From the NCBI RefSeq assembly GCF_014822185.1, contig NZ_QVLR01000065.1, positions 1 through 38,033 on the forward strand: 38,033 bases of DNA, read 5' to 3'. The notes below the pieces were generated by a model. The model saw only the letters and a list, made by a program, of their open reading frames with translations, was not told the DNA's origin and made no database searches. This document shows positions 3,882 through 38,033 of the stretch, one piece after another; position 1 is the stretch's first letter; each line of letters starts with the position of its first letter. Source of the DNA: Azoarcus sp. Aa7 (lineage in GTDB: Bacteria > Pseudomonadota > Gammaproteobacteria > Burkholderiales > Rhodocyclaceae). A program made the translations under genes and the position numbers.

Positions 3882-4751
3882 ATGCACAACACACAAGAAA
3901 AGCGCTGGACGCTGACATTTTCATGCCCCAGCGCTGCAGGCCAGGTCGCCGCGATTTCGGGCTTTCTTGATCGTCAGGGCTGCTACATCAACGAGTTTTC
4001 GTGTTTCGACGACGACCTCAGCGATCGTTTCTTCGTGCGTTGCGTCTTCAGCCGTGAAACCGAGGGCGCGGTCGACGTGGCGACCTTGCGGCACGAGTTC
4101 GCGCCGCTGGCGAAGCGCTTCGACATGGACTGGGCGATGCACGCGCTGTGCGAGCGGCCCAAGGTCCTGATCATGGTGTCGAAGCTCGATCACTGCCTGC
4201 GCGACCTGCTATACCGCTGGCGCATCGGCGAGTTGCCCATCGACATCGTCGGCGTCGTGTCGAATCACCCCGACCTGGAATCCCTCGCCGCGGCCGATGG
4301 CCTGCCGTTCCACCATCTGCCGGTGACCGCCGAGACCAAGCCGCAGCAGGAAGCGAAGCTGATGGCGATCGTCGTGGAGACAGGTGCCGAGCTGGTGGTG
4401 CTGGCGCGCTACATGCAGGTCCTGACCGACGACCTGTGCCGGCGTCTGCACGGCCGTGCGATCAACATCCATCATTCCTTCCTGCCCGGATTCAAGGGGG
4501 CGAAGCCCTATCACCAGGCGCATGCGCGCGGCGTGAAGCTGATCGGCGCCACGGCCCACTATGTGACCGGCGACCTCGACGAGGGGCCGATCATCGAGCA
4601 GGTCGTCGACCGCGTGACGCATGCGCACAGTGCCGAGCAGTTGCTCTCGGTCGGTCGTGACATGGAATGCCAGGCGCTCGCGCGGGCCGTGCTGTATCAC
4701 GTCGAGCGTCGCGTCTTCCTCAACGGTACCCGTACGGTCGTCCTGCCCTGA
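3882..4751 (+). CDS. purU: Formyltetrahydrofolate deformylase PurU
   Basis: PurU hydrolyses 10-formyl-tetrahydrofolate to formate and free tetrahydrofolate in the cytoplasm. The 289-residue product has the usual layout: an N-terminal ACT domain (about residues 8-90) and a C-terminal formyltransferase-type domain. The catalytic triad is visible as Asn195 and His197 in INIHHSFLPGFKGAKPY and Asp233 in GDLDEGPII. The start follows a strong purine-rich ribosome binding site at 3871-3878. In glycine betaine and sarcosine catabolic clusters of pseudomonads a purU paralogue sits with the sarcosine oxidase genes (family knowledge). Here it would recycle folate loaded by sarcosine oxidation, as in those clusters. 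It stands 87 bp upstream of a GlxA-type regulator in the same direction. Confidence 0.93.
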   Translation: MHNTQEKRWTLTFSCPSAAGQVAAISGFLDRQGCYINEFSCFDDDLSDRFFVRCVFSRETEGAVDVATLRHEFAPLAKRFDMDWAMHALCERPKVLIMVSKLDHCLRDLLYRWRIGELPIDIVGVVSNHPDLESLAAADGLPFHHLPVTAETKPQQEAKLMAIVVETGAELVVLARYMQVLTDDLCRRLHGRAINIHHSFLPGFKGAKPYHQAHARGVKLIGATAHYVTGDLDEGPIIEQVVDRVTHAHSAEQLLSVGRDMECQALARAVLYHVERRVFLNGTRTVVLP

Positions 4752-4838
4752 TCGTGTCGATTCCATCGGCCGGCGCCTTGATGGCGCGGGCGGTGCGTAT
4801 AGACTTCGAACAGGAACTACGACTTTCAGGGTATCTCG

Positions 4839-5870
4839 ATGAGCAATGCGATTCCCGGCCAGGGGCCGGGCCACTGGGCCGGGCGGGGCGGCGATGCGCC
4901 GATCCGCTTCGGCTTTCTTCTCGTTCCCGACTTCACGCTGATCGGCTTCGGCGCGGCGGTCGATCCTCTGCGTCTTGCGAACATGGTGGCGCGCAGGAAG
5001 CTGTACGAGTTCGTGACGATCACGATGGACGGCGAGCCGGTGCGTTCGAGTGCCGGCATCTGCGTGCAGCCCGACTATGCGGCGGCCGATGCGACCGACC
5101 TCGACGGCATTTTCGTGGTCGGCCCCAATCCGCTGCCGATCACCGGCACCGAGCCGATCCAGCGCTGGCTGCGCACGCTCGCGGGGCGCGGCGTCGCGCT
5201 TGGCGGGGTGGATACGGGCAGCTATTTCCTCGCCTGCGCGGGGCTGCTCGACGGACATCGCAGCACGATCCACTGGGAAGACATGGACGCGCTGCTCGAC
5301 CGCTTCCCGCGCCTGGTGGTGTCGAACAAGCTCTACGAGGTCGACCGCAACCGTTGTTCGTGCAGCGGCGGTATCGCGCCGGTTGAGATGATGATCCACC
5401 TGATCGGCCTCGGCGGAGGAGGGCGCAAGGTGGCGAAGGCGGTGGCGGAGCTGCTGATCTACGAGTGCCGCGGGCCGGACGAGAAGCAGAAGACCTCGTT
5501 GCGCGACGTCTCCAACGCATCGCATCCCAAGCTCGTCGAGGCGATCAAGCTGATGGAGTGCAACATCGAGGAGCCGTTGTCGATGGAGGAGCTGGCGGCC
5601 CACATGCAGTTCTCGGCGCGCCAGCTCGAACGCCTGTTCCGCGAGACGCTCAACTGCACGCCGCGGCAGTACTACCTGCAGATCCGCCTCGAGCGCGCGC
5701 GCCAACTCCTCACGCGCACCAACCGTCCGATCGCCGACATCGTGATGGCCTGCGGATTCGTGTCCTTCGCGCATTTTTCGCATCGCTACCACGCCGGCTT
5801 CGGCATCTCGCCGAGCGCCGAGCGGCGGCGTCACACTGCAGACGCGGCAGGGGCGGCCAAGCCGGCCTGA
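4839..5870 (+). CDS. GlxA/GbdR-type AraC-family regulator (copy 1)
   Basis: A 343-residue transcription factor with an N-terminal DJ-1/PfpI-like (class I glutamine amidotransferase-like) sensor domain (about residues 20-200) and a C-terminal AraC double helix-turn-helix (about 230-330; EEPLSMEELAAHMQFSARQL and ADIVMACGFVSFAHFSHRY). At the nucleophile elbow the sequence reads GGVDTGSYFLA, so the catalytic cysteine of true amidotransferases is replaced by Thr. This fits a ligand sensor rather than an enzyme. Known relatives such as GbdR, SouR and CdhR respond to betaine, sarcosine or carnitine and activate catabolic operons. It lies between purU and the creatinine uptake/hydrolysis genes, so I infer that it senses creatinine, creatine or a product and activates the promoters at about 6020 and 13975. 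A terminator at 5927-5959 separates it from the permease. Confidence 0.88.
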   Translation: MSNAIPGQGPGHWAGRGGDAPIRFGFLLVPDFTLIGFGAAVDPLRLANMVARRKLYEFVTITMDGEPVRSSAGICVQPDYAAADATDLDGIFVVGPNPLPITGTEPIQRWLRTLAGRGVALGGVDTGSYFLACAGLLDGHRSTIHWEDMDALLDRFPRLVVSNKLYEVDRNRCSCSGGIAPVEMMIHLIGLGGGGRKVAKAVAELLIYECRGPDEKQKTSLRDVSNASHPKLVEAIKLMECNIEEPLSMEELAAHMQFSARQLERLFRETLNCTPRQYYLQIRLERARQLLTRTNRPIADIVMACGFVSFAHFSHRYHAGFGISPSAERRRHTADAAGAAKPA

Positions 5871-6162: not shown

Positions 6163-6207
6163 CAAAACAAATACAAGGCAGCAAGGCCACACAAAGGAGG
6201 CAGTACG

Positions 6208-7590
6208 ATGGAGTACGGTACAGCGAGAATCCCGCACGACAAGCGGGAATACGGGTTCGTCGACACGGTATTCACGTGGTTCGGATCCGGGGTCAATACG
6301 GGATCGTGGGTGTTCGGCGGCATGGCGGCCGCCCTCGGGATGTCGTTCGTGTGGTGGTACAGCGCCGTGTACCTGCCGCTGATGATGATCCCGTGGGCGA
6401 TGGTGGCCTGGATCGGGTGGAAGCACGGCGCGTCCACGGTGACGTCGACGATTCCCTCGCTCGGTGTGAAGGGCGCCCGCTTCATGGGTGTCGGCGAATT
6501 CCTCGGGCTCATCGGCTGGCCCAGCATCAACACCTTCATTGCGGCAATCTCGCTGACGCATGTGTTCCATGCGATGTTCGACTGGCCTGCCTACGGCTCG
6601 CCCGGTTCCACGTGGCCGCTGGTCGCCGGCATCCTCGTGACGGCGCTGTTGCAGGGCATCATCGTGTGCATCGGTCACAGCGCGATCAAGTACCTCGAAT
6701 GGCTGGCGGTGGTGCTGCTGCTGGTCCTCGGCATCTGGGAAACCAAGGTTGTGCTCGAGCATTGGGACTACGACAAGATCGCGAACTTCACCTTGCCCGC
6801 GGCTCAGCACTCGCCGGCGTTCTACATCGACCTGGCGTTCGGGTTCTGCTGGGGCTGGGCGCAGATCTGCGACTTCTCCCGTTTCTCGAAGAGTTCCGCC
6901 TCGGCCACCGTCGGCAGCTGGATCGGCGTGAACCTGGGGCAGGGGTGGTTCATGCTCGTCGGTGCGATCGGTGTCATCGGTGTCGTCCTCGAAACCGGTG
7001 TGTTCGATCCGAACAATGCCGATCCGAGTTCGACAATCGCTTCGCTCGGTCTGGGCATGGTGGCCTTCCTCGTGATCTTCTTCGCCACGGTGAGCACCAA
7101 CGTCACGGTCCTCTACGGGGCCGGCATGGGGCTGGTCGGCGCCTCGCGCACGTCGAATCCGCGCAAATTCCTGTATTTCATCGCGGTCCTGCAGCTGGTC
7201 ATGTGCTTCCTGCCGCTTGCGTTCAAGAACTTCATCCATTATTTCGAGTTCTTCCTCGGCATCGTCGGCGGCGTGTTCATCCCCTTGTGGACCCTTGTGG
7301 TGCTCGACTACTTCGTGGTGCGGCGAGCGCGCGTCCGCGACGAGGACCTCTTTGCCGGTGAGGACGCCCTCGGGCGCACCAAGAGTGCACTGGGCGACTG
7401 GAACATCTGCGGGTGGGTTGCGATGGTTGTGGGGCTGGCGGTGTTCTATCTGCTGCACTACGGGTTCAATGAAATCGCCATCGTAACGACGGCCTCGCTG
7501 CCCGCCATCGTGGCCACCGCCGCGACCTACCTGCTGCTGGTTGCCGTCAAGGGCGTTCCTGCGCAGCATCGGGTCGTCAAGCGCGCCTGA
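6208..7590 (+). CDS. NCS1-family permease, probable creatinine transporter
   Basis: A 460-residue inner-membrane protein of the nucleobase:cation symporter-1 family, closest in character to cytosine permeases (CodB-like). About twelve hydrophobic segments are visible from near residue 25 to the C-terminus. Family-like segments include GSGVNTGSWVFGG near the first helix and GFCWGWAQICDFSRFSK in the middle. The start follows AAAGGAGG at 6193-6200 with an 8-nt spacer; a longer frame from 6097 is rejected. The gene directly precedes creatininase (86 bp gap), a pairing known in pseudomonads. I infer uptake of creatinine, a small cyclic base like cytosine, by cation symport. The substrate is not proven by sequence alone. 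Confidence 0.85.
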   Translation: MEYGTARIPHDKREYGFVDTVFTWFGSGVNTGSWVFGGMAAALGMSFVWWYSAVYLPLMMIPWAMVAWIGWKHGASTVTSTIPSLGVKGARFMGVGEFLGLIGWPSINTFIAAISLTHVFHAMFDWPAYGSPGSTWPLVAGILVTALLQGIIVCIGHSAIKYLEWLAVVLLLVLGIWETKVVLEHWDYDKIANFTLPAAQHSPAFYIDLAFGFCWGWAQICDFSRFSKSSASATVGSWIGVNLGQGWFMLVGAIGVIGVVLETGVFDPNNADPSSTIASLGLGMVAFLVIFFATVSTNVTVLYGAGMGLVGASRTSNPRKFLYFIAVLQLVMCFLPLAFKNFIHYFEFFLGIVGGVFIPLWTLVVLDYFVVRRARVRDEDLFAGEDALGRTKSALGDWNICGWVAMVVGLAVFYLLHYGFNEIAIVTTASLPAIVATAATYLLLVAVKGVPAQHRVVKRA

Positions 7591-7676: not shown

Positions 7677-8447
7677 ATGAAGAGTGTTCATATATCCGAG
7701 CTCGCGTGGCCGGAATACGATGCCCTGGTCCGCGATGGGCGCACCCCGGTGCTGATTCCCGTCGGCGCGCTCGAGCAGCACGGGCCGCACATGTCGATGA
7801 ACCCGGACGTGCTGCTGCCCACGGCCATCTCGGAGCGGGTCGCCGATCGCATCGGCGCGCTGGTCGCGCTGCCCATCGCCTACGGCTACAAGTCGCAGCA
7901 GAAGAGCGGGGGCGGCAACCACATGCCCGGCACGACCAGCCTCGATGGCAGCACCGTGACGAGCACGATTCGTGACGTGCTGAAGGAACTCGCCCGGCAC
8001 GGCGTGCGGCGCACGGTCCTGGTCAACGGCCACTACGAGAATTCCGCATTCATCGTCGAAGGCGTTGACCTGGCGCAGCGCGAGCTGCGCTGGGACGGCA
8101 TCCGCGATTTTTCGACGGTCGTTTTGTCATATTGGGATTTCGTGACGCAGGAAGCCATCGACGCGATCTACCAGGGTGAATTCCCGGGTTGGGCCGTGGA
8201 GCATGGCGGGGTGCTGGAGACGTCGCTGATGCTGCATCTGCATCCTCATCTGGTGGATATGGATAAGGTCTGCGACCACGCGCCGGCGCAATTCCCGCCC
8301 TATGACTTCTTCCCGATCAAGCCCGAATGGACGCCGGCATCCGGTTGCCTGTCATCCGCGAAGCGCGCGAGCGCACAACATGGCGAAACCTTGCTGAAGG
8401 TTTGTGTAGACGGCATCAGCAGGGAATTGATGTCCGCCTTCGAGTGA
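7677..8447 (+). CDS. Creatininase (creatinine amidohydrolase)
   Basis: A 256-residue enzyme that reversibly hydrolyses creatinine to creatine with a binuclear metal site. It aligns along its whole length with the well-studied Pseudomonas putida creatininase as I recall it. Metal ligands are visible as Glu33 and His35 in VGALEQHG, Asp44 in NPDVLLPTA, and His119 and Glu121 in NGHYEN. Also conserved are KSQQKSGGGNH, the SYWDFV tryptophan segment and the WAVEHGGVLETSLML stretch. Creatininase-superfamily relatives (for example MftE-like proteins) lack this combination, so true creatininase is favoured. The start ATG follows AAGGAGA at 7663-7669. It is probably co-transcribed with the upstream NCS1 permease. 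A strong hairpin at 8489-8533 follows. Confidence 0.95.
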   Translation: MKSVHISELAWPEYDALVRDGRTPVLIPVGALEQHGPHMSMNPDVLLPTAISERVADRIGALVALPIAYGYKSQQKSGGGNHMPGTTSLDGSTVTSTIRDVLKELARHGVRRTVLVNGHYENSAFIVEGVDLAQRELRWDGIRDFSTVVLSYWDFVTQEAIDAIYQGEFPGWAVEHGGVLETSLMLHLHPHLVDMDKVCDHAPAQFPPYDFFPIKPEWTPASGCLSSAKRASAQHGETLLKVCVDGISRELMSAFE

Positions 8448-8904: not shown

Positions 8905-9732
8905 ATGAAGAGCATTGGACGGAAATCCGGGACCGCCTTTATTGCGGGCTGCTGCGTTGCTCTGGGGATGGTCGCAGGAAAAAGTGCGTTCGCCACGGAA
9001 AGCTGGCAGAACACCAACGTGACCGTCGGATATACGACGGAATCGAAATTCGATCCGGTATTCGGCACCGGCACGGCCGACAAGAAATTGACGACCGTGC
9101 GCCTCGAGCATTTCGGTGTGCATGAATACGGCGACAACTATTTCTTCTTCGATACCTATCACGGCAAGGAAGTCGGCAGCTTTTTCGGCTTCGGCGCAGG
9201 CTCATTCGGCGAGCAGACCAAGGACCAGTACTTCGGCGTGTGGAATCCGCGGCTGAGCCTCTCCAAGATCACCGGCGCGAATCTCTCGTTCGGATTCATT
9301 GCGGATGTGAATCTCGCAGCGCGTCTCGAACGCGGTTCCTATGCGAACTTCCGTGCGAACAATTTCGGCATTGCCTTCGACCTGAAAGTGCCGGGTTTCA
9401 GTTTCTTCGAAACGGACCTCTACGCACGCAGCGCGAGGTTTACGGGCGACGGAGGAAAGGACATCCACACGCTGTTCTGGCGCACGTTTGCGATGCTGCC
9501 GTTCGAGATCGGCGGGTTCAAATTCACCTGGTCGCCGTTGCTGCTCGTGAACTTCAACAACAAGCAGCGCGACAACACCGTCTTCGTTCAGCCCGACTTG
9601 TGGCTGAAACTCAACAAGCATTTCGACATCGGCTATCGGCACGAATACGCGACGTACAAGAAGACGCCTGGTGAAGGCGGGGGTACGTACTCGCGCACCA
9701 CGCCGACGCTGCAGGTGCGCTGGAACTTCTGA
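8905..9732 (+). CDS. Tsx/OmpK-like outer-membrane channel (copy 1)
   Basis: A 275-residue protein with an N-terminal signal peptide (positively charged start, hydrophobic stretch about residues 10-25, likely cleavage after SAFA near residue 31). The mature part is rich in alternating aromatic/polar strands and ends in VRWNF, the C-terminal Phe that serves as the outer-membrane assembly signal. The segments DNYFFFDTYHGKE and the SKITGANLSFGF region resemble the Tsx/OmpK nucleoside-channel family. A paralogue is encoded at 26721-27530. I infer a substrate-specific beta-barrel for creatinine or creatine entry, feeding the nearby permease or ABC system. Confidence 0.8.
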   Translation: MKSIGRKSGTAFIAGCCVALGMVAGKSAFATESWQNTNVTVGYTTESKFDPVFGTGTADKKLTTVRLEHFGVHEYGDNYFFFDTYHGKEVGSFFGFGAGSFGEQTKDQYFGVWNPRLSLSKITGANLSFGFIADVNLAARLERGSYANFRANNFGIAFDLKVPGFSFFETDLYARSARFTGDGGKDIHTLFWRTFAMLPFEIGGFKFTWSPLLLVNFNNKQRDNTVFVQPDLWLKLNKHFDIGYRHEYATYKKTPGEGGGTYSRTTPTLQVRWNF

Positions 9733-9873
9733 TTTTCCGCTGACCACGATCGGCCGCCACCGCATGCAGGTTCGCGGCCGACCGCCAATGTTTTCCGAAT
9801 ATTCGTCGTCTGGTCACGAGAGCTGCCTCAGCAGCCGCGGCCTGCCGATCCGTTCGTGCCAAAGGAGATCGAA

Positions 9874-11028
9874 ATGAAAGAGGAAGACAAGAACCTGTTG
9901 TCGCCGTTCCGCCGCCGCTTCCTGCAGGGCAGCAGCGCCCTCGCCGTGGGCAGCGCACTGCCGCTGTCGCTCGTTTCCGCGAGCAGCAACGCGCAGACCG
10001 CCGGGCAGCCGCGCACGCTGACGATGCTGGCGTGGTATGGCCATGCCGAGCCGGACGTCGTTGCCGAGTTCGAGGCGAAGCACAACGTCAAGGTGAAGCC
10101 GAAGTACTACACCGGCGGCGACAACATGCTGGCGCTGATCTCGCAGTCGCCGGCCGGCACCTATGACCTGATCCTGTCCGACGCGGAGTATGTGCCGCAG
10201 CTGCGCAAGGCGGGCTACCTCGAGCGGCTCGAGGCGAAGGACTACGCGTTCGACGACTATTTCCCCGAGTTCCAGAAGTTTCCGGGGCACTGGGACGGCA
10301 ACGACCTGTACGCCGTGATGGTCCGCTTCGGCTTCCTCGGCGTCGCGTACAACACGGATGCGGTGCCGGAGAGCAAGGCGCGCTCGTTCAAGGTGTACTG
10401 GGATCCGGCCTACAAGGGCAAGGTGGGGCACTTCGACTGGTATCTGCCCAACATGGGGGAGCTCAGCCTGTACGCCGGCCACAAGGCGCCCTACAAGCTG
10501 GAAGGGGATCAGTTCGCCAAGTTGAAGAGCGTGATGAAGTCGCTGCGTCCGCAGGTCGCGGGCTTCTTCGATTACGGCGGCACCTTCAGCGGCCTGAAGA
10601 ACGGGCAGCTCCAGCTCGTGTGCGGCATCGGCGACTGGATCACCGGCACGCTGGCGCGCTCCGGGGCCAAGGTGAGTTCGGTCGTTCCCGACGAGGGCGG
10701 CCTGCAATGGACGGAGTCGCTGTCGATCGGCAAGGGCACGCGCAATCGCGATCTCGCCAACGCCTTCATCCAGTACATCACCTCGGCGCAGGGGCAGGTG
10801 AAGTCCGCGAAGATGGCCGCGTATCCGGCGCTGATTCCGAACCGCAAGGGCTGGGAGCTGCTGGGGCAGAGCGACCCGGCCGAGGCGCGCCGCCAGGGCA
10901 TGGTGCTGCAAGGGCATAGCGTCATGGACGACATCCGCTCCGGGAAGATCGTCTTCCGCCAGTTGCCGGTGCAGCAAAGTATCGAGGACTGGAACGACTT
11001 CTGGTCCGAGTACAAGGAAAGAGCCTGA
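9874..11028 (+). CDS. ABC transporter substrate-binding protein (polyamine type)
   Basis: A 384-residue periplasmic binding protein of the PotD/PotF type (extracellular solute-binding family 1-like). The N-terminus has FRRRFLQGSSALAVGSALP, a likely Tat-type signal, with cleavage near SNAQTA. The mature protein begins TLTMLAWYGHAEPDVVAEFE, typical for the family, and contains DLILSDAEYVPQLRKAG. ATG 9874 is chosen because AAAGGAG (9861-9867) lies 6 nt upstream; ATG 9856 would overlap that site. It heads a four-gene operon with two permeases and an ATPase. Its position between creatininase and creatinase suggests uptake of creatine or another guanidino compound (inference). Confidence 0.88.
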   Translation: MKEEDKNLLSPFRRRFLQGSSALAVGSALPLSLVSASSNAQTAGQPRTLTMLAWYGHAEPDVVAEFEAKHNVKVKPKYYTGGDNMLALISQSPAGTYDLILSDAEYVPQLRKAGYLERLEAKDYAFDDYFPEFQKFPGHWDGNDLYAVMVRFGFLGVAYNTDAVPESKARSFKVYWDPAYKGKVGHFDWYLPNMGELSLYAGHKAPYKLEGDQFAKLKSVMKSLRPQVAGFFDYGGTFSGLKNGQLQLVCGIGDWITGTLARSGAKVSSVVPDEGGLQWTESLSIGKGTRNRDLANAFIQYITSAQGQVKSAKMAAYPALIPNRKGWELLGQSDPAEARRQGMVLQGHSVMDDIRSGKIVFRQLPVQQSIEDWNDFWSEYKERA

Positions 11029-11088: not shown

Positions 11089-11931
11089 ATGTCGTCCAAT
11101 ACCAGCCGTCGGCGGTGGCCGCTGCTGCTGCCTCCCCTGCTGTGGCAGTTGACCTTCTTCCTGCTGCCGCTGCTTTTCCTTTTCGTCATCTCGTTCTGGA
11201 GTGTCGTCAATTTCCGGCTCGAACCGGACATGACCCTGAAGAACTGGGACTTCATGCTGAGCCGCAGTTCCTTCTGGTCGGCCTACGGCCATACCTGGGC
11301 CTTGGCCCTGGGGGCGGCGGTCGTCACGACCTGCTGCTCCTTTCCCGCGGCCTGCAGCCTCGCTTTCACCGTGTCGGAGCGCACGCGCAAGCTCGCGCTG
11401 ATGTTCCTGGTGGTGCCGTTCTTCACCAGCTACCTCGTGCGCGTGTACTCGTGGCAGGCCTTCCTGTCCGACAACGGCATCGTCAATGCGCTGCTGTCGC
11501 TCGTGGGCCTGGACGGGCTGCCGATGCTCAATTCCGATTTCGGTTCGCTGGTCGGCTACGTGACGCTGGCGCTGCCGCTCGTGACCTTGGTGCAGACGAT
11601 GGGGCTGGCGCAGATCGACCGCAATCTGATCGAGGCGGCGCACAACCTGCGCGCCGGGCCGGTGCGGACGCTGTTCGAGGTGATCATGCCGCTGGCGAAA
11701 CCCTCGCTGGTCGTGGGAGCGCTCTTCGCGTTCATCCTCGCCTTCGGCGATTTCGTCGCGCCGACCTATCTCGGCGGCGGTGCTCCGCCGACCTTGAGCA
11801 ACCTGATCATCGACACCACCAAGTCCGGCCAGCAGTGGCCGCGTGCGGCGGTGGTCGCGATCGTGATGATCCTCACCCTCGTCGTCACCTCCCTCGCGGC
11901 GGTGCGGCTCGCCTACGGGAGGCGCAAATGA
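11089..11931 (+). CDS. ABC transporter permease (PotB/PotH-like)
   Basis: A 280-residue inner-membrane subunit with about six transmembrane segments. The cytoplasmic coupling helix (EAA motif) is visible as EAAHNLRAGPVRTLFEVIMP around residues 184-203. The family also shows in SYLVRVYSWQAFLSDNGIVN, characteristic of PotB/PotH proteins, and in AFGDFVAPTYLGGG. Its stop codon overlaps the start of the next permease (ATGA), which indicates translational coupling. It would form a heterodimeric channel with that permease, powered by the ATPase at 12791-13879. Confidence 0.9.
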   Translation: MSSNTSRRRWPLLLPPLLWQLTFFLLPLLFLFVISFWSVVNFRLEPDMTLKNWDFMLSRSSFWSAYGHTWALALGAAVVTTCCSFPAACSLAFTVSERTRKLALMFLVVPFFTSYLVRVYSWQAFLSDNGIVNALLSLVGLDGLPMLNSDFGSLVGYVTLALPLVTLVQTMGLAQIDRNLIEAAHNLRAGPVRTLFEVIMPLAKPSLVVGALFAFILAFGDFVAPTYLGGGAPPTLSNLIIDTTKSGQQWPRAAVVAIVMILTLVVTSLAAVRLAYGRRK

Positions 11932-17468: not shown

Positions 17469-17514
17469 TTATTGATCTACCTAGGAATAATAAGAGACTA
17501 AAGGTAAATAAACG

Positions 17515-20977: not shown

Positions 20978-20981
20978 CCGG

Positions 20982-26720: not shown

Positions 26721-27530
26721 ATGAAATTGTCATTTGAATGCAATTGGTCGGGGCGCGTCCTCGCGCGGGGGCTACTGGCGCTGGCGCTGATATCCGGTGC
26801 GGGCCAGTCGGTTGCAGCCGACTGGAGCGAGACGGATGTGCAGGTGATGAACGGCACCCGCTTCCGCGATCCCGGCAACCACGACAATGTGACGAAGACA
26901 ACGGTCACGCTGCAGCACGTGAGCGGCTACGCCTACGGTCGCAACTACTTCTTCGTCGATTCCTACTGGGGAACGAAGAACGCGCCGCGGTCTAACGACA
27001 TCTACGGCGAGTACTACCATTATCTGAGCCTGGGAAAGATCACCGGGGCGAAATTCGGCGAGAGCTTCCTGAAGGACGTCAGCCTGACCGCCGGCGTCAA
27101 CGCCGGGTCATCGACCGGAGGGGCCGGCACGCGCATCCTGCTGTATGGCGTGACGCTGGATTTCGCGGTGCCCGGGTTCAGCTACTTCAACGTCGATCTG
27201 CTCGCCTACGACGACCGGTCGCAATTCGACGGCGTACCGAACCATTACCGCAAGAGTTATCAGGTGACCCCGGTGTGGAGGCTGCCGTTCACCCTGGGGG
27301 GTACGCACTGGAGCTTCGAAGGCTTCTGCGACTTCATCGGTGCGCGCGGGCAGGGCACGGTCAGCCAGGTGCTGTGCCAGCCGCAGCTGCGCCTCGATGT
27401 AGGGCATCTGGTGTCCGGCCGCCGCGACGCGTTCTACATCGGGACCGAGTACCAGTACTGGCGGGACAAGTACGGGATCGACGGCCTGAACGAGAGCTTT
27501 CCCAACGTGATGGCAGTCGTGAAGTTCTAG
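26721..27530 (+). CDS. Tsx/OmpK-like outer-membrane channel (copy 2)
   Basis: A 269-residue paralogue of the porin at 8905-9732, with the same architecture: signal peptide ending near SVAADW (about residue 34), aromatic beta-strand pattern, the shared segments GRNYFFVDSYWG and LSLGKITGAKFG, and a terminal Phe (MAVVKF). ATG 26721 is chosen because AGGA lies 9-10 nt upstream; an in-frame ATG at 26694 sits before that site. It follows the second NCS1 permease by 39 bp. I infer a matched outer-membrane path for N-methylhydantoin. The two porins differ enough to suggest different ligands. Confidence 0.8.
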   Translation: MKLSFECNWSGRVLARGLLALALISGAGQSVAADWSETDVQVMNGTRFRDPGNHDNVTKTTVTLQHVSGYAYGRNYFFVDSYWGTKNAPRSNDIYGEYYHYLSLGKITGAKFGESFLKDVSLTAGVNAGSSTGGAGTRILLYGVTLDFAVPGFSYFNVDLLAYDDRSQFDGVPNHYRKSYQVTPVWRLPFTLGGTHWSFEGFCDFIGARGQGTVSQVLCQPQLRLDVGHLVSGRRDAFYIGTEYQYWRDKYGIDGLNESFPNVMAVVKF

Positions 27531-28907: not shown

Positions 28908-29435
28908 ATGCAAGTCCTGATCCGCTGCTTCGAAAGGCTCGCGCTCGGCATGAACCGGCTCGCCGCCGTCGCCGCCGTGCTGATGAGCGTGTTCGTGTTC
29001 CTGGGCGTCGTGATGCGCTATTTCGTCGGCGCACCATTCGCCTTTTCCGATGAATTCATCGGCCTGCTGTTCGCCACGATGGCCTTCCTCGCGATGCCGC
29101 TGGGCCTCGTGATGCGCCGTCATATCATTCTCGACATCGTTACGCGCGGCTTGCAGGGGCCGCTGCGCCACCTCGTCGATGTCGGTGCCACGGTGATCCT
29201 CACGACCTTCTGCGTGTGGTTCCTTGCCCTGTCCTACGACTTCGCGGACTATTCGCGCCTGCTCGACGCGCGCTCCGACATCGGTGCGATGGTGCTGTGG
29301 CCGTGGATGGCGATGCTGCCGCTGTGCACCGTGGTGCTGGTGCTGGTGAGCGTCGGTCAGCTCGTCGACAGCCTGCGCCAGCTCGCCGGCCGACCGTCGC
29401 TGTTCACGCTCGCGAGCGAGGAGGAAGTGTTATGA
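28908..29435 (+). CDS. TRAP transporter small permease (DctQ family)
   Basis: A 175-residue membrane protein with four hydrophobic segments, the usual DctQ layout. The early FLGVVMRYFVGAPFAFSDEF and MPLGLVMRRHIILDIV segments fit the family. It lies 76 bp after the binding protein, and its TGA overlaps the ATG of the large permease (ATGA), so the two membrane subunits are coupled. It forms the small subunit of the Na+-driven symporter. Confidence 0.9.
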   Translation: MQVLIRCFERLALGMNRLAAVAAVLMSVFVFLGVVMRYFVGAPFAFSDEFIGLLFATMAFLAMPLGLVMRRHIILDIVTRGLQGPLRHLVDVGATVILTTFCVWFLALSYDFADYSRLLDARSDIGAMVLWPWMAMLPLCTVVLVLVSVGQLVDSLRQLAGRPSLFTLASEEEVL

Positions 29436-30778: not shown

Positions 30779-31696
30779 CTATTCCTGTCCCTCATGTGCG
30801 ATGCCGAATTCGTCCGCGTTGTCGTGGAGGAACTGTGCGAAGCGCTCGACGGTCGGCGTCACGACATCCTTGCGCCAGCAGGCCATGAGTTCCAGCGTCT
30901 TCTGTCGCCCTGCCAGGGGCCGGATCACCAAGCCCTTGCGCTGGATGTTCTCTGCGCAACGCGTGTACAGCGCGACGCCGATGTTGGCCGCGACGAGGCC
31001 GAAGATCCCGTCGCTGGTCGACGCCTCCTGTGCGATTACCGGCGAAAAGTTCGCCGCGTGACACAGCGCGAAGAAATGCACCCGGAAGGCCTCCCATGAA
31101 TCCTTCGAGCCGAGGATGAACTTCTCGTTCATCAGGTCCCGGATCGATATCGACGGCTTTTCCGCGAGGGGATGCGCCGCCGGCAGCAGCACGACAAGTT
31201 CCTCCTTGGCCACGGTCACCTGGCTGATCGTGGGGGACTCGAACGGGCCGATCAGGAAGCCGATGTCGATTCGCGACTCGAGCAGTGCTTCCTTCTGCTT
31301 CGAGCTCGGGAAGTGAAACAGCTCGACCTTGATGCCCGGGTGTGTCTTCAGGAACTTCTCGATGATCGCCGGTAGGATACCGTTGATCGCGAAGTCCATG
31401 TAGGCGATGCGCAGGTAGCCGACCTTGCCGTCGGCCGCCGCTTGCGCGAGCAGCGAGGCCTTCTCGATGTGACCGAGGGCGAGGCGGCATTCGTACAGGA
31501 AGGTGCGCCCGGCCTCCGTGAGTTGCACGACCCGCGTCGTGCGCGACAGCAACTCGGCGCCGACGGCCTCTTCCAGGTGCTGGATCGTGCGCGTGAGCGC
31601 CGATTGGGTCATGTACAGACGTTCGGCCGCGGGGCGGAACTGCAGTTCTTCGGCGACTGCGACGAAGGCGCGCATATGGCGGATTTCGAAACGCAT
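30779..31696 (-). CDS. LysR-family transcriptional regulator
   Basis: A 305-residue LysR-type regulator. The N-terminal winged helix-turn-helix (residues 1-62) reads MRAFVAVAEELQFRPAAERL and SALTRTIQHLEEAVGAELLS. The co-inducer domain follows from about residue 90 with typical segments (RIAYMDFAINGILPAIIEKF, DIGFLIGPFES). ATG 31696 gives the usual start; a longer frame to 31783 would cross the promoter region. It is divergent from amidohydrolase copy 2 over 164 bp that hold CAATA/TATTG repeats. LysR proteins usually regulate the divergent gene, so it likely controls copy 2 and, by shared motifs, copy 1 and hyuAB, with a small carboxylate or hydantoin as co-inducer. Confidence 0.92.
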   Translation of the reverse strand: MRFEIRHMRAFVAVAEELQFRPAAERLYMTQSALTRTIQHLEEAVGAELLSRTTRVVQLTEAGRTFLYECRLALGHIEKASLLAQAAADGKVGYLRIAYMDFAINGILPAIIEKFLKTHPGIKVELFHFPSSKQKEALLESRIDIGFLIGPFESPTISQVTVAKEELVVLLPAAHPLAEKPSISIRDLMNEKFILGSKDSWEAFRVHFFALCHAANFSPVIAQEASTSDGIFGLVAANIGVALYTRCAENIQRKGLVIRPLAGRQKTLELMACWRKDVVTPTVERFAQFLHDNADEFGIAHEGQE

Positions 31697-32741: not shown

Positions 32742-32876
32742 CTGCGCTTCCTTGTTGGTCGCTTCCATCGCTGTGTTGAACCCCTGCCACGACCCCGCGC
32801 CGGCTATGAAACCCCCGGTGACGAGTACCCCCAGTCCGATCCTGACGGAGGGCTTGAGGAACAGGTCAGGGGTGTT
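32742..32876 (-). pseudogene. N-terminal fragment of a NapC/NirT-type cytochrome c
   Basis: On the minus strand the translation VRIGLGVLVTGGFIAGAGSW followed by QGFNTAMEATNKEA matches the membrane anchor of NapC/NirT/TorC multihaem cytochromes, which continues in intact proteins with a Cys-X-X-Cys-His haem site. Here the match breaks right after TNKEA, and no haem-binding motif follows. About 45 codons remain, with no start codon in a proper setting. Its left-hand continuation (lower coordinates) is unrelated sequence. It overlaps the last codons of the GlxA-type regulator by about 11 bp, so it is a broken piece captured at a junction. Confidence 0.65.
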
Positions 32877-33966
32877 GCCGGTTCCTGCGTGCCTGGCTCG
32901 GCGACTGGCCGAAGAACTCGCGGTAACAGCGGCTGAAATGCGGCGCCCCGGTGAAGCCGCAGGCGACCGCGATGCTGGTGATCGGGTCGCAGGTCTGCAG
33001 CAGCAGGCGGCGGGCGCGGGTGATGCGCAGTTCAAGGTAGTAGCGCGCGGGGCTTGCGTGGATGTGGCGCTTGAACAGGCGGTCGAGCTGGCGTGCGGAG
33101 ATTTCGGCGTGGCGGGCGAGGTCCTCGATGCAGAGAGGTTCCTCGATGTTGTTTTCCATCAGTTCCAGCACCAGGCGCAGCGGAGCGGGCAGCGCGGGGC
33201 TGTGCGCGAGGGCGGGCATCGCGGTGCTGCGCAGGTCGTCCTTGCCGCGGTCGCACGCGAGGATGTCTTCGATGCCCTGCACCACGTCGTCGCCGTGGTG
33301 GTGGCGGATCACCGCGAGCATCATGCCGAGGGCGCTGTTGGCGCCGGCGCAGGAGATGCGGTTGCGGTCGATGACATAGGGCTGGGACTGGATCTGCACA
33401 CGCGGATGGGACTCCTCGAGGCCGGCGCGGCTCTCCGGATGGACGGTGCAGGCGTAGCCGTCGAGGAGGCCGGCTTGGGCGAGGAGGTAGCTGCCGTTCC
33501 ACAGGCTGCCGAGGATCAGCGGCTGGCGTGCGGCTTCGCGCAGCTTGTCGAGCACCGCGCGCGGCGGCTGCAGGCGCGAGCGGTAGCCGCCGCATACGAT
33601 GAGCATGTCGAGGCCGTGGGGGTCGAGATCGGCGAGCAGGCCGTCCGCCGAGACCTGGATGCCGAGGTCGCTGCGGACCGAAGCAGCGTCCAGGGCCAGC
33701 GTGCGGAAGCGGTACAGCGGGTCGCGGCTCAGCAGGTTGGCTGTGACGATGGCGTCGAGCGCGCCGGTGAAGGCCATCATCGAGAAGTGCTCGAGCAGCA
33801 CGAAAACCACCTGGCGGCTGATCGGGGCGTGTACGTCGTCGCCCGCCGGCTTCTGCAGGAAGGCCTGGTTGCTGTGGCGCAGGGGGCTGCCGAAGAGGCG
33901 TGCCGGCGGATCGGGGAAGTTCATGGCGTTGTCGAAGTTGTCCGTCGGCGGCGAGAAGGCCACCAT
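32866..33966 (-). CDS. GlxA/GbdR/SouR-type AraC-family regulator (copy 2)
   Basis: A second regulator with a DJ-1/PfpI-like sensor domain (beginning RQVVFVLLEHFSMMAFTGAL) and a C-terminal AraC DNA-binding domain (EEPLCIEDLARHAEISARQL and SIAVACGFTGAPHFSRCYR). The elbow residue is Asn in GSLWNGSYLLA, so again no catalytic Cys. The start is uncertain: in-frame ATGs lie at 34083 (with AAGGA 10 nt upstream), 34008, 33966 and 33924. I list 33966 (366 residues) as a compromise. It is divergent from glyA-sdaA-soxB, the arrangement expected of a sarcosine/betaine-responsive activator such as SouR or GbdR (family knowledge); control of that operon is inferred. Confidence 0.85.
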   Translation of the reverse strand: MVAFSPPTDNFDNAMNFPDPPARLFGSPLRHSNQAFLQKPAGDDVHAPISRQVVFVLLEHFSMMAFTGALDAIVTANLLSRDPLYRFRTLALDAASVRSDLGIQVSADGLLADLDPHGLDMLIVCGGYRSRLQPPRAVLDKLREAARQPLILGSLWNGSYLLAQAGLLDGYACTVHPESRAGLEESHPRVQIQSQPYVIDRNRISCAGANSALGMMLAVIRHHHGDDVVQGIEDILACDRGKDDLRSTAMPALAHSPALPAPLRLVLELMENNIEEPLCIEDLARHAEISARQLDRLFKRHIHASPARYYLELRITRARRLLLQTCDPITSIAVACGFTGAPHFSRCYREFFGQSPSQARRNRQHP

Positions 33967-34241: not shown

Positions 34242-35516
34242 ATGTTTGCACTGACCGACCGCATTGCCGATTTCGACGACGAGCTGCAGGCGGCGATGGA
34301 CGCCGAGTTCGAGCGCCAGGAATCGCACATCGAGCTGATCGCCTCCGAGAACTACACCAGCCCGCGCGTGCTGGAAGCGCAGGGCAGCGTGCTGACCAAC
34401 AAGTACGCCGAGGGCTACCCGGCGAAGCGCTACTACGGCGGCTGCGAGCACGTGGATGTCGTGGAGCAGCTGGCGATCGACCGCGCGAAACGGCTCTTCG
34501 GCGCGGACTACGCGAACGTGCAGCCGCACTCGGGCTCGCAGGCCAACGCGGCGGTGTACATGGCGCTGCTCGAACCCCACGACACGGTGCTGGGCATGAG
34601 CCTCGCGCACGGCGGGCACCTGACGCACGGCGCCAAGGTGAACTTCTCCGGCAAGCTCTACAACGCGGTGCAGTACGGCCTCGACGAAGCGACCGGCGAG
34701 ATCGACTACGCCCAGGTCGAGGCGCTGGCGCGCGAGCACAAGCCCAGGATGATCGTCGCGGGCTTCTCGGCCTACTCGCGCGTCGTCGACTGGAAGCGCT
34801 TCCGCGAGATCGCGGACCTCGTCGGCGCCAAGCTCTTCGTCGACATGGCCCACGTCGCCGGGCTCGTCGCGGCGGGCCTGTACCCCAACCCCATCCCCTT
34901 CGCCGACGTCGTCACCACCACCACCCACAAGACCCTGCGCGGCCCGCGCGGCGGCCTGATCCTCGCGCGTGCCAACGCCGAGCTCGAGAAGAAGCTCAAC
35001 GCGGTGGTGTTCCCCGGCATCCAGGGCGGCCCGCTGATGCACGTCATCGCCGCCAAGGCCGTCGCGCTGAAGGAGGCGCTGCAGCCCGAGTTCCGCGCCT
35101 ACCAGCAGCAGGTGGTCAAGAACGCGCGGGCGATGGCCGGCGTGTTCATCGAGCGCGGCTACAAGATCGTGTCGGGCGGCACCGACGACCACCTGTTCCT
35201 CGTCGATCTGGTCGCCAAGGGCCTCACCGGCAAGCAGGCCGATGCGGCGCTGGGCGCGGCGAACATCACGGTGAACAAGAACGCCGTGCCCAACGATCCG
35301 CAGTCGCCCTTCGTGACCAGCGGCATCCGCATCGGCACGCCCGCGATCACCACGCGCGGCTTCAAGGAGGCCGAAGCGAAGGAACTCACGCACTGGATCT
35401 GCGACGTGCTCGACCACATCGACCGCGTTGACCAAATCGAGTCGGTGATCGCCGCGGTGCGCGAGAAGGCCAAGGCCTTGTGCGCGCGCTTCCCGGTCTA
35501 CCCGGCCAGCCGCTGA
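34242..35516 (+). CDS. glyA: Serine hydroxymethyltransferase GlyA
   Basis: A 424-residue PLP enzyme interconverting serine and glycine with tetrahydrofolate. In this operon it joins glycine from sarcosine oxidation with methylene-tetrahydrofolate to give serine. The PLP lysine is Lys230 in [14 protein letters not shown]. Other conserved blocks are [40 protein letters not shown] and [16 protein letters not shown]. The length is slightly above the usual 415-420. A longer open frame to 34074 lacks a ribosome binding site. It lies 22 bp upstream of sdaA. A second, housekeeping glyA elsewhere in the genome is probable, as in pseudomonads with such clusters. Confidence 0.96.
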
Positions 35517-35538: not shown

Positions 35539-36918
35539 ATGGCGATCAGCGTATTCGAGATGTTCAAGGTCGGCATCGGCCCGTCCAGTTCCCACACCGT
35601 GGGGCCCATGCGTGCCGCGCTGACCTTCGCGTCCGGCCTCAAGGACGACGGGCTGCTGCCGCGTGTGCGCCGCATCCGCGCCGAGTTGTACGGTTCGCTC
35701 GGCGCGACCGGCAAGGGCCACGGCAGCGACAAGGCGGTGCTGCTGGGCCTGGAAGGGGAGGCGCCCGACCTCATCGACCCCGACACCATCGACAGCCGCC
35801 TCGCGCGCATCCGCGAGGGCAGGCGCCTGACGCTGCTCGGGCTGCATGCGGTGGCATTCGAGGAGAAGACCGACCTCGTCTTCCTGCGTCGCCAGACGCT
35901 CCCGTTCCACCCCAACGGCATGCGCCTGACGGCCTTCGGCGACGGCGACGCGGAGCTCGCGAGCCGCGTGTATTACTCGGTGGGCGGCGGCTTCGTCGTG
36001 AACGAAGAGGCGGCCGGCGCGGACCGCATCGTCGAGGACGCGACCGAGCTGCCGTACCCCTTCCACAGCGCCGACCAACTGCTCACGCAGTGCGCGGTGA
36101 ACGAACTCTCCATCAGCCAGTTGATGCTGGAGAACGAGAAGGCCTGGAGGAGCGAAGCCGAGACGAGGAACGGCCTGCTGCACATCTGGAAGGTGATGCA
36201 GGCCTGCGTGCGCCGCGGCTGCGAGATCGAAGGCACGCTGCCCGGCGGCATGAAGGTCAAGCGCCGCGCCGCGGCGATGCACCGCACGCTCTCCGGCACC
36301 CCCGAGGCCTGCCTGCGCGACCCGCTCACGACGATGGACTGGGTGAACCTCTACGCGCTGGCGGTGAACGAGGAGAACGCCGCGGGCGGGCGCGTCGTCA
36401 CCGCGCCCACCAACGGCGCGGCCGGGATCGTCCCCGCGGTGCTGCATTACTACTACCGCTTCATCCCCGGCGCGACCGAGGACGGCGTCGTGCGCTTCCT
36501 GCTCACGGCCGCGGCGATCGGCTTCCTGTTCAAGGAGAACGCGTCGATCTCGGGCGCGGAAGTCGGCTGCCAGGGCGAGGTCGGGGTGGCGTGCTCGATG
36601 GCGGCCGGTGCCTTGGCCGAAGTGCTCGGCGGCACCCCCGAACAGGTCGAGAACGCCGCCGAGATCGGCATGGAGCACAACCTGGGGCTCACCTGCGACC
36701 CGGTGGGCGGCCTCGTGCAGGTGCCGTGCATCGAGCGCAACGCGATGGGCTCGATCAAGGCGATCAACGCCGCGCGCATGGCGCTGCGTGGCGACGGCAA
36801 GCACTTCGTGTCGCTCGACAAGGTGATCAAGACCATGCGCGAAACGGGGCGCGACATGAAGGACAAGTACAAGGAGACCTCCCGCGGGGGGCTCGCCGTG
36901 AACGTCATCGAGTGCTGA
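35539..36918 (+). CDS. sdaA: L-serine dehydratase (single-chain, iron-sulfur)
   Basis: A 459-residue enzyme that deaminates L-serine to pyruvate and ammonia with a [4Fe-4S] cluster. The three cluster cysteines expected in the family are Cys344 (EVGCQGEVG), Cys386 (LTCDPVGG) and Cys397 ([10 protein letters not shown]). The N-terminal block [20 protein letters not shown] is the SdaA/SdaB hallmark. The length matches the fused type (about 455). It stands 22 bp after glyA and 19 bp before soxB, so all three are one operon. It provides the last step from sarcosine carbon to pyruvate. Confidence 0.95.
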
Positions 36919-36937
36919 AGATCAGGAGAACAGAGTC

Positions 36938-38033
36938 ATGCAACATTACTCAGGATTCGGGCTCGTCAAGCACGCGCTCACCTACCACGAGAACTGGCAG
37001 CGCGCGTGGCGCAACCCGACGCCGAAGAAGAAGTACGACGTGATCGTCGTGGGTGGCGGCGGCCACGGCCTCGCGACCGCCTACTACCTCGCCAAGGAAC
37101 ACGGCATCACCAACGTCGCGGTGGTCGAGAAGGGCTGGCTGGGCGGGGGCAACACCGCGCGCAACACCACCATCGTGCGCTCGAACTACCTGTGGGACGA
37201 GGCCGCGTGGCTGTACGAGCACGCGATGAAGCTGTGGGAAGGCCTGTCGCAGGACCTCAACTACAACGTGATGTACTCCCAGCGCGGCGTCATGAACCTG
37301 GGGCACACGCTGCAGGACATGCGCGACATCCACCGGCGCGTGAACGCCAACCGCTTGAACGGCATCGACGGCGAGGTGCTCGACGTGAAGCAGATCCAGG
37401 AGATCGTGCCGATCATGGATGTGTCGCGCAACACGCGCTACCCGATCATGGGCGCCTCGTGGCAGCCGCGCGGCGGCGTCGCGCGTCACGACGCGGTGGC
37501 CTGGGGCTTCGCCCGCGGTGCCGATGCGCTGGGCGTCGACATGCTGCAGCAGACCGAAGTCACCGGCATCCGCAAGAGCGGCAACAAGGTGCTGGGTGTC
37601 GAGACCAACCGCGGCTTCATCGCCGCCGACACGGTGGGCGTGGTCACCGCCGGCAACTCCGGCGTGCTCGCCAAGATGGCCGGCTTCCAGCTGCCGATCG
37701 AATCGCACCCGCTGCAGGCGCTGGTGTCCGAGCCGATGAAACCCATCCTCGACACCGTCGTGATGTCGAACAAGGTGCACGGCTACGTGAGCCAGTCGGA
37801 CAAGGGCGACCTCGTGATCGGCGCCGGCATCGACGGCTACAACGGCTACGGCCAGCGCGGCAGCTACTCGACCATCGAGCACACGCTGCAGGCCATCGTC
37901 GAGCTCTTCCCGATGTTCTCGCGCGTGCGCATGAACCGCCAGTGGGGCGGCATCGTCGATACCTGCCCGGACGCCTGCCCGATCATCTCGGCCACGCCGG
38001 TCGGGGGCCTCTTCTTCAACTGCGGCTGGGGCA
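36938..38033 (+). CDS. soxB: Sarcosine oxidase beta subunit (partial, 3' cut)
   Basis: The frame runs open from ATG 36938 (ribosome binding site AGGAG 9 nt upstream) to the window edge, giving the first 365 residues of about 415. It is the large FAD/FMN subunit of heterotetrameric sarcosine oxidase, which oxidises sarcosine to glycine, hydrogen peroxide and methylene-tetrahydrofolate. The dinucleotide-binding motif [16 protein letters not shown] is at about residues 37-52. The family blocks [16 protein letters not shown] and [17 protein letters not shown] follow; His184 in the latter is a candidate covalent flavin-site residue. The remaining subunit genes (soxD, soxA, soxG) would lie beyond the edge. 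Order glyA-sdaA-soxB is not the same as in Pseudomonas, where sox genes often sit between them. Confidence 0.95.

What the first reader, a model, noticed from the sequence alone, without database searches (positions are those of the whole stretch)
3882..38033. Two-branch creatinine/creatine and N-methylhydantoin supercluster running to pyruvate
Seen: creatininase and creatinase on one side, HyuAB and N-carbamoylsarcosine amidohydrolase on the other, then glyA, sdaA, soxB and purU, with five distinct transport systems. Established: these enzymes give sarcosine by two different routes. Inference: the region is a single catabolic island that takes several creatinine-derived compounds and converts all carbon to pyruvate and formate. 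I do not recall a described locus with both complete downstream branches plus dedicated porins and carriers.
Basis: partly seen in the sequence, partly recalled or inferred. Interest (0 to 1): 0.8.

Follow-up and report, generated by a model that had tools for sequence, protein, structure and literature searches.

The report
Creatinine and methylhydantoin degradation gene island
A soil-type bacterium carries, side by side, gene sets for eating creatinine, creatine and N-methylhydantoin; the pathways are known, but the island also holds a repeated enzyme gene whose copies are kept alike and an unexplained fatty-acid enzyme that, in close relatives, shares the island's private on-switch.

Summary
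The contig (an Aromatoleum, Rhodocyclales) carries creatininase, creatinase, a HyuAB closest to N-methylhydantoinase, N-carbamoylsarcosine amidohydrolase (CSHase), glyA, sdaA, a cut soxB, purU, five inner-membrane transport systems and two channel-like proteins. Both routes to sarcosine and on to pyruvate are known biochemistry. No creatinine deaminase lies in the locus, so the second branch probably starts from imported N-methylhydantoin or N-carbamoylsarcosine.

(1) CSHase is present twice, 99% identical, its seven coding differences all within one 73-base stretch near the end; several relatives also hold two, often more alike within a genome than between genomes: gene conversion. (2) An intact beta-ketoacyl-ACP synthase (KAS) sits in the cluster in 8 of 8 Aromatoleum genomes examined that have it, and in six other genera; FabF-like (beta) and FabB-like (gamma) forms are separate clades, so it was recruited twice. 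(3) A 27-base box precedes CSHase, KAS and an M19 dipeptidase gene in Aromatoleum; in six whole genomes all 17 matches fall inside these clusters. The divergent LysR is its likely reader. What KAS does is unknown; I propose that it spares fatty-acid synthesis from inhibition. New variant of a known kind.

The parts
3882..4751 (+). purU, 10-formyltetrahydrofolate deformylase (releases formate)
   Evidence: TIGR00655 over cut-off; start at 3882 with ribosome site
4839..5870 (+). GlxA/AraC-type regulator 1
   Evidence: Pfam HTH_18 + DJ-1_PfpI
6208..7590 (+). NCS1-family permease a, probably creatinine uptake
   Evidence: Pfam Transp_cyt_pur; position beside creatininase; substrate inferred
7677..8447 (+). 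Creatininase (creatinine to creatine)
   Evidence: TIGR04448 351.6 bits vs 235; 1j2t E 1.8e-108
8905..9732 (+). Tsx-like channel 1, outer membrane by inference
   Evidence: PF03502 23.7 bits, below cut-off 27.2; 31% to channel 2; kept in cluster
9856..11028 (+). ABC substrate-binding protein, PotD-like; the true start may lie upstream of 9856
   Evidence: PF13416 over cut-off; PRK09501 below cut-off
11089..11931 (+). ABC permease 1
   Evidence: PF00528
11928..12782 (+). ABC permease 2
   Evidence: frame and similarity to permease 1; 88-95% hits in relatives
12791..13879 (+). ABC ATPase
   Evidence: PF00005
14059..15309 (+). Creatinase (creatine to sarcosine and urea)
   Evidence: 1chm E 1.3e-205, near full length
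15613..16938 (+). MFS transporter, ProP/metabolite-H+ symporter type, probably creatine uptake
   Evidence: best models TIGR00883 and ProP, both below cut-off; substrate inferred
17067..17315 (+). Broken RidA remnant
   Evidence: matches Pfam positions 3-81 of 121; full length in two relatives
17485..17510 (+). Regulon box upstream of CSHase copy 1, degenerate: 2 mismatches to the looser pattern, not found by the stricter one
17598..18284 (+). CSHase copy 1 (N-carbamoylsarcosine to sarcosine, CO2 and NH3)
   Evidence: 99% to copy 2; family by the 1nba match of copy 2
18356..19648 (+). FabF-like beta-ketoacyl-ACP synthase (KAS), catalytic motifs intact
   Evidence: TIGR03150 603.8 vs 493.75; cluster clade in tree
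20925..20950 (+). Weaker regulon box upstream of hyuA, 3 mismatches
21102..23198 (+). HyuA, N-methylhydantoinase subunit
   Evidence: 7hk5 N-methylhydantoinase E 3.8e-199
23209..25017 (+). HyuB, N-methylhydantoinase subunit
   Evidence: 7hk5 E 8.2e-177
25170..26681 (+). NCS1-family permease b, probably N-methylhydantoin uptake
   Evidence: PF02133 over cut-off; kept beside hyuAB in other genera; substrate inferred
26721..27530 (+). Tsx/DUF5020-like channel 2, outer membrane by inference
   Evidence: PF16412 28.8 bits, below cut-off 36.7
27812..28831 (+). TRAP substrate-binding protein DctP
   Evidence: PF03480, NF037995 over cut-off
28908..29435 (+). TRAP small permease DctQ
   Evidence: PF04290
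29432..30721 (+). TRAP large permease DctM; with DctPQ probably N-carbamoylsarcosine uptake
   Evidence: TIGR00786 over cut-off; CSHase-TRAP pairs; substrate inferred
30779..31696 (-). LysR-type regulator, divergent from CSHase copy 2
   Evidence: PF03466, PF00126
31747..31773 (+). Regulon box, exact; the only match within 2 mismatches of the stricter pattern in this genome
31861..32547 (+). CSHase copy 2
   Evidence: 1nba E 2.8e-71
32866..33966 (-). GlxA/AraC-type regulator 2
   Evidence: 39% to regulator 1
34242..35516 (+). glyA, glycine to serine
   Evidence: NF000586 over cut-off
35539..36918 (+). sdaA, serine to pyruvate
   Evidence: TIGR00720 over cut-off
36938..38033 (+). soxB, sarcosine oxidase beta subunit, cut by contig end
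   Evidence: TIGR01373 over cut-off; second copy cut at the same residue on C94

Best explanation
A modular scavenging locus with three entry modules that meet at sarcosine. Module A imports creatinine and creatine (NCS1a, Tsx-like channel, ABC, MFS) and converts them by creatininase and creatinase to sarcosine and urea. Module B imports N-methylhydantoin (NCS1b, second channel), opens it with ATP-dependent HyuAB, and CSHase gives sarcosine. Module C imports N-carbamoylsarcosine by the TRAP system, for CSHase. Sarcosine then goes through sarcosine oxidase, GlyA and SdaA to pyruvate, with PurU releasing formate. The LysR protein most likely turns on a small private regulon through a 27-base box: CSHase, KAS (directly in six relatives; behind CSHase copy 1 here), in two relatives an M19 dipeptidase, and perhaps HyuAB through a weaker box. 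Extra CSHase copies are kept alike by gene conversion and may have served as points where modules were shuffled. The regulon includes a spare KAS whose role is unknown; most likely, I think, it keeps fatty-acid synthesis going when a pathway compound or by-product impairs the housekeeping enzyme. Shown: gene families, duplication, conversion pattern, box specificity, KAS clades. Inferred: substrates of each transporter, LysR as reader of the box, the KAS role.
For: Enzyme identities. Association: of 77 CSHase loci (the best 80 of 256 matches, merged to 77, from 73 genomes; 46 with full 10-kb flanks) hyuA is in 37, NCS1b in 23, TRAP in 16, LysR in 49, KAS in 15, soxB in 17. 8 of the 16 TRAP loci show no hyuA, though L018 has hyuB at its cut end and some loci are short. 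Box: 17 matches within 2 mismatches in six whole genomes, all inside the clusters, none for the backwards control; at least 16 of 18 fixed bases in front of the 14 CSHase starts looked at (one a remnant) and 18 of 18 in front of 6 of 6 LysR-divergent KAS genes (random 400-base windows from the same stretches reach 14 or more in 10 of 2000, some of which may be true sites). Conversion: window copies show no difference in the first 605 coding bases, then 7 within 73 (chance of such clustering about 1e-5, computed after seeing it); G012: 9 differences, all in the first 20 bases (5e-13). Copies pair by genome in Oceanimonas (100/99), Oceanisphaera (100/94), G009 (100/99) and, weaker, Zobellella (91/90). 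Same-genome 96.3 and 97.1% in the first two vs same-position 87.6-92.0%. KAS: two clades, 100/97 and 99/98, apart from the FabF and FabB genes of the same genomes in the tree; KAS in 8 of 8 Aromatoleum genomes with the cluster.
Against: No growth, enzyme or expression data. Transporter substrates rest on neighbourhood alone. soxA was not found in this assembly. In Zobellella the same-genome identity (91.0%) does not exceed the best same-position one (92.0%); in G015 and G005 copies are about as close to other genomes as to each other, and one copy of Pseudomonas L025 is closer to another strain. The window's own pair is not a supported clade in the tree, whose fork there is open. 'One CSHase per module' fails in G012 (two CSHases, no TRAP in the stretch), L018, L019 and L069 (one CSHase, both systems). 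CSHase copy 1's box is degenerate; hyuA's box is 15 of 18 here and only 12-13 of 18 in the six hyuA genes of relatives looked at. KAS is missing in 62 of 77 loci, 31 of the 77 having short flanks.
Confidence: 0.75

Rival explanations
1. HyuAB and CSHase serve other hydantoins or N-carbamoyl compounds (for example plain hydantoin or lactams), and creatinine compounds are only one use of the sarcosine end.
For: NCBIfam's nearest named models are caprolactamase subunits, below cut-off. 70 of 77 CSHase loci show no creatinase or creatininase. No creatinine deaminase was found.
Against: Both HyuA and HyuB match N-methylhydantoinase 7hk5 far better than any other solved chain; CSHase matches 1nba best; sarcosine genes sit beside them.
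Confidence: 0.15
2. The two CSHase copies are simply a very recent duplication by recombination, without gene conversion.
For: 99% identity and shared upstream DNA; in two-copy Aromatoleum genomes the copies lie within 16 kb.
Against: Differences sit near the ends. The alignment stops outside about 800 bases. The same two-copy layout is shared by three Aeromonadaceae genera whose copies still pair by genome.
Confidence: 0.2
3. The KAS gene is a passenger with no part in this metabolism.
For: It is absent from 62 of 77 loci, from 8 of 9 Caballeronia loci, and differs more between Aromatoleum species (80-83%) than HyuA, HyuB, DctM and LysR (89-97%).
Against: It has the private box in 6 of 6 LysR-divergent cases, intact catalytic motifs in all 15 cluster rows of the tree, and was taken up in two different KAS types. 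My rough estimate, from three further KAS hits in 5.39 Mb, is that chance would put one in about one of 77 loci.
Confidence: 0.3

Closest known systems
Creatinine/creatine and N-methylhydantoin routes of Pseudomonas putida and Arthrobacter (recalled; clusters compared in PMC8864220, legend and passages seen)
   Same: Same enzymes: creatininase, creatinase, HyuAB, CSHase, sarcosine oxidase; same end at glycine, serine and pyruvate.
   Different: Here no creatinine deaminase in the locus, two CSHase genes, TRAP and ABC systems, and a KAS tied to the same box.
Azoarcus sp. KH32C plasmid pAZKH locus (L132; by length and place the same as G014:C2)
   Same: Nearly the same gene set in one run: GlxA, M24 creatinase, creatininase, NCS1, channel, ABC, MFS, HyuAB, NCS1, DUF5020, LysR, CSHase, FabF.
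   Different: On a 737-kb plasmid typed mobilizable; one full CSHase followed by fabF; no TRAP and no glyA-sdaA-soxB in the 40 kb shown.
AmtR-controlled creT-crnA, cshA, hyuB genes of Corynebacterium glutamicum ATCC 14067 (PMC8864220)
   Same: creatininase, CSHase and HyuB for creatine and creatinine nitrogen.
   Different: Controlled by AmtR, separate operons, no creatinase, not usable as sole carbon source.

Membership tests
Creatininase (TIGR04448) | Score over the curated cut-off; full-length match to solved creatininase | tested here: met
   351.6 vs 235 bits; 1j2t residues 3-254
Creatinase | Closer to solved creatinases than to prolidases or other M24 enzymes | tested here: met
   1chm 685.9 bits vs best peptidase 85.8 bits
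N-methylhydantoinase (HyuAB, ATP-dependent) | Both subunits closest to N-methylhydantoinase among solved relatives | tested here: met
   7hk5: 666.6 and 592.3 bits; next 426.5 and 226.5
N-methylhydantoinase (HyuAB, ATP-dependent) | ATP-dependent hydrolysis of N-methylhydantoin | not testable with these tools
   needs enzyme assay
N-carbamoylsarcosine amidohydrolase | Closest to 1nba within the isochorismatase superfamily | tested here: met
   1nba 242.7 bits; next 119 bits, also named N-carbamoylsarcosine amidohydrolase
Complete creatinine to N-methylhydantoin branch | Creatinine deaminase gene in the locus | tested here: not met
   no such family among the window genes scanned
Complete creatinine to N-methylhydantoin branch | Creatinine deaminase gene elsewhere in the genome | tested here: inconclusive
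   four of eight Amidohydro_3 hits checked as partial stretches, three without any NCBIfam match; other families not searched
Heterotetrameric sarcosine oxidase | SoxA subunit present | tested here: inconclusive
   not found in this assembly, found in 7 of 7 relatives searched; both soxB copies are cut at contig ends
FabF (TIGR03150) | Score over cut-off and intact Cys-His-His | tested here: met
   603.8 vs 493.75; motifs intact (residue roles recalled)
LysR regulon with a shared operator | LysR protein binds the box | not testable with these tools
   box location and specificity only

The most novel reading that the evidence does not exclude
Breakdown of N-methylhydantoin or N-carbamoylsarcosine creates a need for a dedicated beta-ketoacyl-ACP synthase. 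Two bacterial lineages met that need separately, one with a FabF-type and one with a FabB-type enzyme, and in Aromatoleum it is under the pathway's own genome-unique operator. It would mean an unrecognised link between this pathway and fatty-acid synthesis: inhibition of the housekeeping KAS by a pathway compound or by-product, or a new reaction by the cluster KAS.
Probability: 0.4. Interest if true: 0.7.

Novelty: new variant of a known kind. Interest (0 to 1): 0.5.

Why it matters
The pathways are known, but the locus shows how they are built from interchangeable import-plus-hydrolysis modules with repeated CSHase genes kept alike by copying. The genome-unique box gives a ready handle on the regulon. 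The repeated recruitment of a fatty-acid condensing enzyme is a concrete, testable puzzle: it may reveal a toxic effect of creatinine-type breakdown products on fatty-acid synthesis, or a new KAS reaction. I found no paper that links CSHase or hydantoinase genes with a KAS (open-licence library only; the two papers hold both words but their titles concern enzyme classification and fungal metabolites, and I did not open them).

Tried and rejected
Rejected: creatininase-family look-alikes (MftE and IolN models score 82 and 69 bits, below their cut-offs) and prolidase or ectoine hydrolase for the M24 gene. Rejected: KAS as the misplaced housekeeping gene; the genome has another FabF on C107, 53% identical. 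Rejected as first reading: true loss of soxA, because a second soxB on C94 is cut at the same residue. No tRNA and no Rfam family at gathering score in the window. An even sample of the class to test the KAS link failed: only the own genome of 369 had CSHase at 1e-60, so counts rest on the 77 loci, which favour close relatives of the query; five of them are Aromatoleum and two (L005, L021) hold the same KAS gene. Plasmid search gave 7 records; I read the annotation of two. The box in other genera is only weakly similar (13 to 15 of 18 fixed bases upstream of CSHase in 16 of 72 loci looked at; a further one with 18 is Aromatoleum), so the box claim is limited to Aromatoleum. The gap 19649-21101 matched relatives only in one 90-base and one 38-base piece; not explained further. 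For Halomonas cerina (L058) the 2,705-base perfect alignment is the two overlapping windows matched to themselves and was discarded; its two CSHase copies, 979 bases apart, are 97.2% alike. The CSHase tree used 53 of 57 pieces; four partial pieces of L031 and L036 were left out. The KAS tree used 34 rows; matches without a locus of their own, three further Pseudomonas cluster KAS (L026, L027, L028) and one partial match (L119) were left out, and the labels fabF, fabB, kas2 and kas3 in it are mine.
Full report
WHAT WAS CHECKED. The window is contig C65, 38,033 bases, of a 5.39-Mb draft genome. I called genes by open frames and codon-position GC and scanned them with Pfam and NCBIfam; creatininase, creatinase, CSHase, HyuA, HyuB and the KAS were compared with solved structures.

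GENES. Left to right after mutS: purU; a GlxA/AraC regulator; NCS1 permease; creatininase; Tsx-like channel; ABC system of four genes; creatinase; MFS; broken RidA; CSHase copy 1; KAS; a 1.45-kb low-GC gap; HyuA, HyuB; second NCS1; second Tsx/DUF5020-like channel; TRAP DctPQM; LysR (reverse); CSHase copy 2; second GlxA/AraC (reverse); glyA; sdaA; soxB, cut by the contig end. Identities: creatininase TIGR04448 over cut-off; creatinase 685.9 bits to 1chm against 85.8 to the best peptidase; HyuA and HyuB best to the same solved N-methylhydantoinase 7hk5; CSHase best to 1nba.

PATHWAY. From established biochemistry (recalled; part of it stated in the Discussion of PMC8864220) these enzymes give sarcosine from creatinine or creatine and from N-methylhydantoin or N-carbamoylsarcosine, then glycine, serine and pyruvate. 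A urease alpha-subunit gene lies elsewhere in the genome (C16), so urea from creatinase can probably be used. Missing is creatinine deaminase: none among the window genes; none among ten gap proteins of relatives that I scanned, out of 119 gap frames; none recognised among four of eight Amidohydro_3 hits in the genome, taken as partial stretches, three of which gave no NCBIfam family. So the second branch is probably fed from outside, not from creatinine, but a deaminase elsewhere is not excluded.

MODULES. CSHase of 96% identity or more is in 7 of 16 same-genus genomes searched, besides our own. In these seven the same parts are found in different orders. KAS is present in 8 of 8 genomes with the cluster, window included. 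Creatininase is in the window, G005, G012, G014 and G015; it is not in the 60 kb fetched of G009, and the stretches of G001 and G003 end too early. G015 has two hyuAB modules in a row with different NCS1 permeases (92% and 29% to ours). In 77 loci from 73 genomes, found with CSHase as bait (Aromatoleum gives five of them), hyuA is in 37, NCS1b in 23, TRAP in 16, LysR in 49, KAS in 15, creatinase or creatininase in 7. Eight TRAP loci show no hyuA (one has hyuB at its cut end; some are short); in Fodinicurvata (L034) and Ferruginivarius (L049), both with full flanks, LysR, CSHase and TRAP stand together without hyuAB. That suggests that the TRAP system brings in N-carbamoylsarcosine. The creatininases of two Halomonadaceae loci (L051, L056) pass TIGR04448, so two-branch loci are not unique to Aromatoleum.

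REPEATED CSHASE. The two copies share about 800 bases (112 upstream plus the gene). There is no difference in the first 605 coding bases and there are 7 within the next 73. G012 has 9, all in the first 20 bases. Such end-loaded differences are the mark of gene conversion between older copies. In Oceanimonas, Oceanisphaera and Zobellella the order CSHase-TRAP-CSHase-hyuAB-NCS1-KAS-LysR is shared, yet copies are 96.3, 97.1 and 91.0% alike within a genome against 87.6-92.0% for the same position between genera, and they pair by genome in the tree (100/99, 100/94, and 91/90 for Zobellella). Against: Zobellella's 91.0% is below its best same-position value of 92.0%; G005 and G015 pairs are no closer than cross-genome ones; in Pseudomonas L025 the copies are 82.4% alike and one is 94.7% to another strain; the window pair is not resolved in the tree. 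Often there is one CSHase per import module, but G012 has two without TRAP in the stretch, and L018, L019 and L069 have one with both systems. A CSHase remnant is seen in G015, and broken copies in L031 and L036.

KAS. The window KAS scores as FabF, but is 53% identical to another FabF of the genome and nearest among solved chains to 3e60 and 3kzu (I recall these as alphaproteobacterial). In a tree of 34 sequences, cluster KAS of Aromatoleum (8), Paraburkholderia and Caballeronia form one FabF-like clade (100/97); five cluster KAS of Pseudomonas fulva, P. baetica, Oceanimonas, Oceanisphaera and Zobellella form another clade (99/98), FabB-like (two checked; best model KAS I at 611.8 and 605.9 bits, just below the cut-off of 630). 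Each is apart from the FabF or FabB genes of the same genomes in the tree. Catalytic motifs are intact in all 15. The program warned of long branches, and a non-cluster KAS of P. baetica is sister to the first clade. By open frames KAS follows glyA by 17 bases in Paraburkholderia and precedes MFS and hyuA in P. fulva. Of nine Caballeronia loci, some short, one has it. What it does is unknown. Its absence from 62 of 77 loci suggests that it is not essential to the route.

BOX. Aligning the DNA upstream of CSHase and KAS showed a common element, GCAATAAT-N8-AAYTGTAAATA, followed in most CSHase promoters by a stretch like CAATAGTATTGGCTAGTATTCC and in KAS promoters by a related one. It is in front of the 14 CSHase starts looked at (16 to 18 of 18 fixed bases, one a remnant) and of 6 of 6 KAS genes divergent from LysR (18 of 18). 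A search of six whole genomes with up to 2 mismatches gave 17 matches, all in these clusters, and none for the pattern read backwards. Two of them lie upstream of an M19 dipeptidase gene (G005, G015; the G005 gene, the G015 one by similarity). The window's copy 1 box is too degenerate for that search. HyuA in the window has a weaker copy (15 of 18); in relatives hyuA scores 12-13 of 18 in 6 of 6, against a mean of 9.0 in random windows. In the window KAS follows CSHase copy 1, as in KH32C, where LysR stands divergent to CSHase-fabF. I infer that LysR reads the box, since it is the divergent neighbour; I have no binding data.

SARCOSINE OXIDASE. soxA was not found in this assembly by family or by protein search, though the seven relatives searched have it. 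A second contig, C94, begins in soxB at the same residue, and relatives G005 and G009 hold several soxB and soxA copies. A collapsed repeat is the simplest reading.

LITERATURE. Nine searches of the open-licence library; two searches listed only 20 of 33 and 12 of 1,392 papers. PMC8864220: passages and the Discussion read. PMC4417704: whole text read. The others: listing only. No listed title joins hydantoinase or CSHase genes with KAS. Most subscription papers are not covered.

VERDICT. Observation confirmed; interpretation partly supported. As a pathway it is ordinary and largely known. The additions (repeated and homogenised CSHase, private box, recruited KAS) lift the interest to about 0.5.

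Noticed in passing
17067-17315: RidA (enamine/imine deaminase) gene broken here but open and full length in two relatives (G009, G003).
   Followed up: partly
19649-21101: Low-GC, gene-poor gap between KAS and hyuA with almost no match to relatives apart from the hyuA promoter part.
   Followed up: partly
L106:2418-3485 and G015:C62:63881-64981: M19 membrane dipeptidase gene near CSHase with the exact regulon box upstream; not among the window genes. Its substrate in this pathway is unknown.
   Followed up: partly
L132 (NC_020548.1 8607-49290): In Azoarcus sp. KH32C the two-branch locus lies on a 737-kb plasmid typed as mobilizable.
   Followed up: partly
G005:C6, C16, C20; G009:C1: soxB and soxA are found in two or three identical or near-identical copies in some relatives; in the draft G005 this may partly be an assembly effect.
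   Followed up: no
L058:10001 and 10980: Halomonas cerina carries two CSHase genes in tandem, 979 bases apart start to start, 97.2% alike.
   Followed up: no
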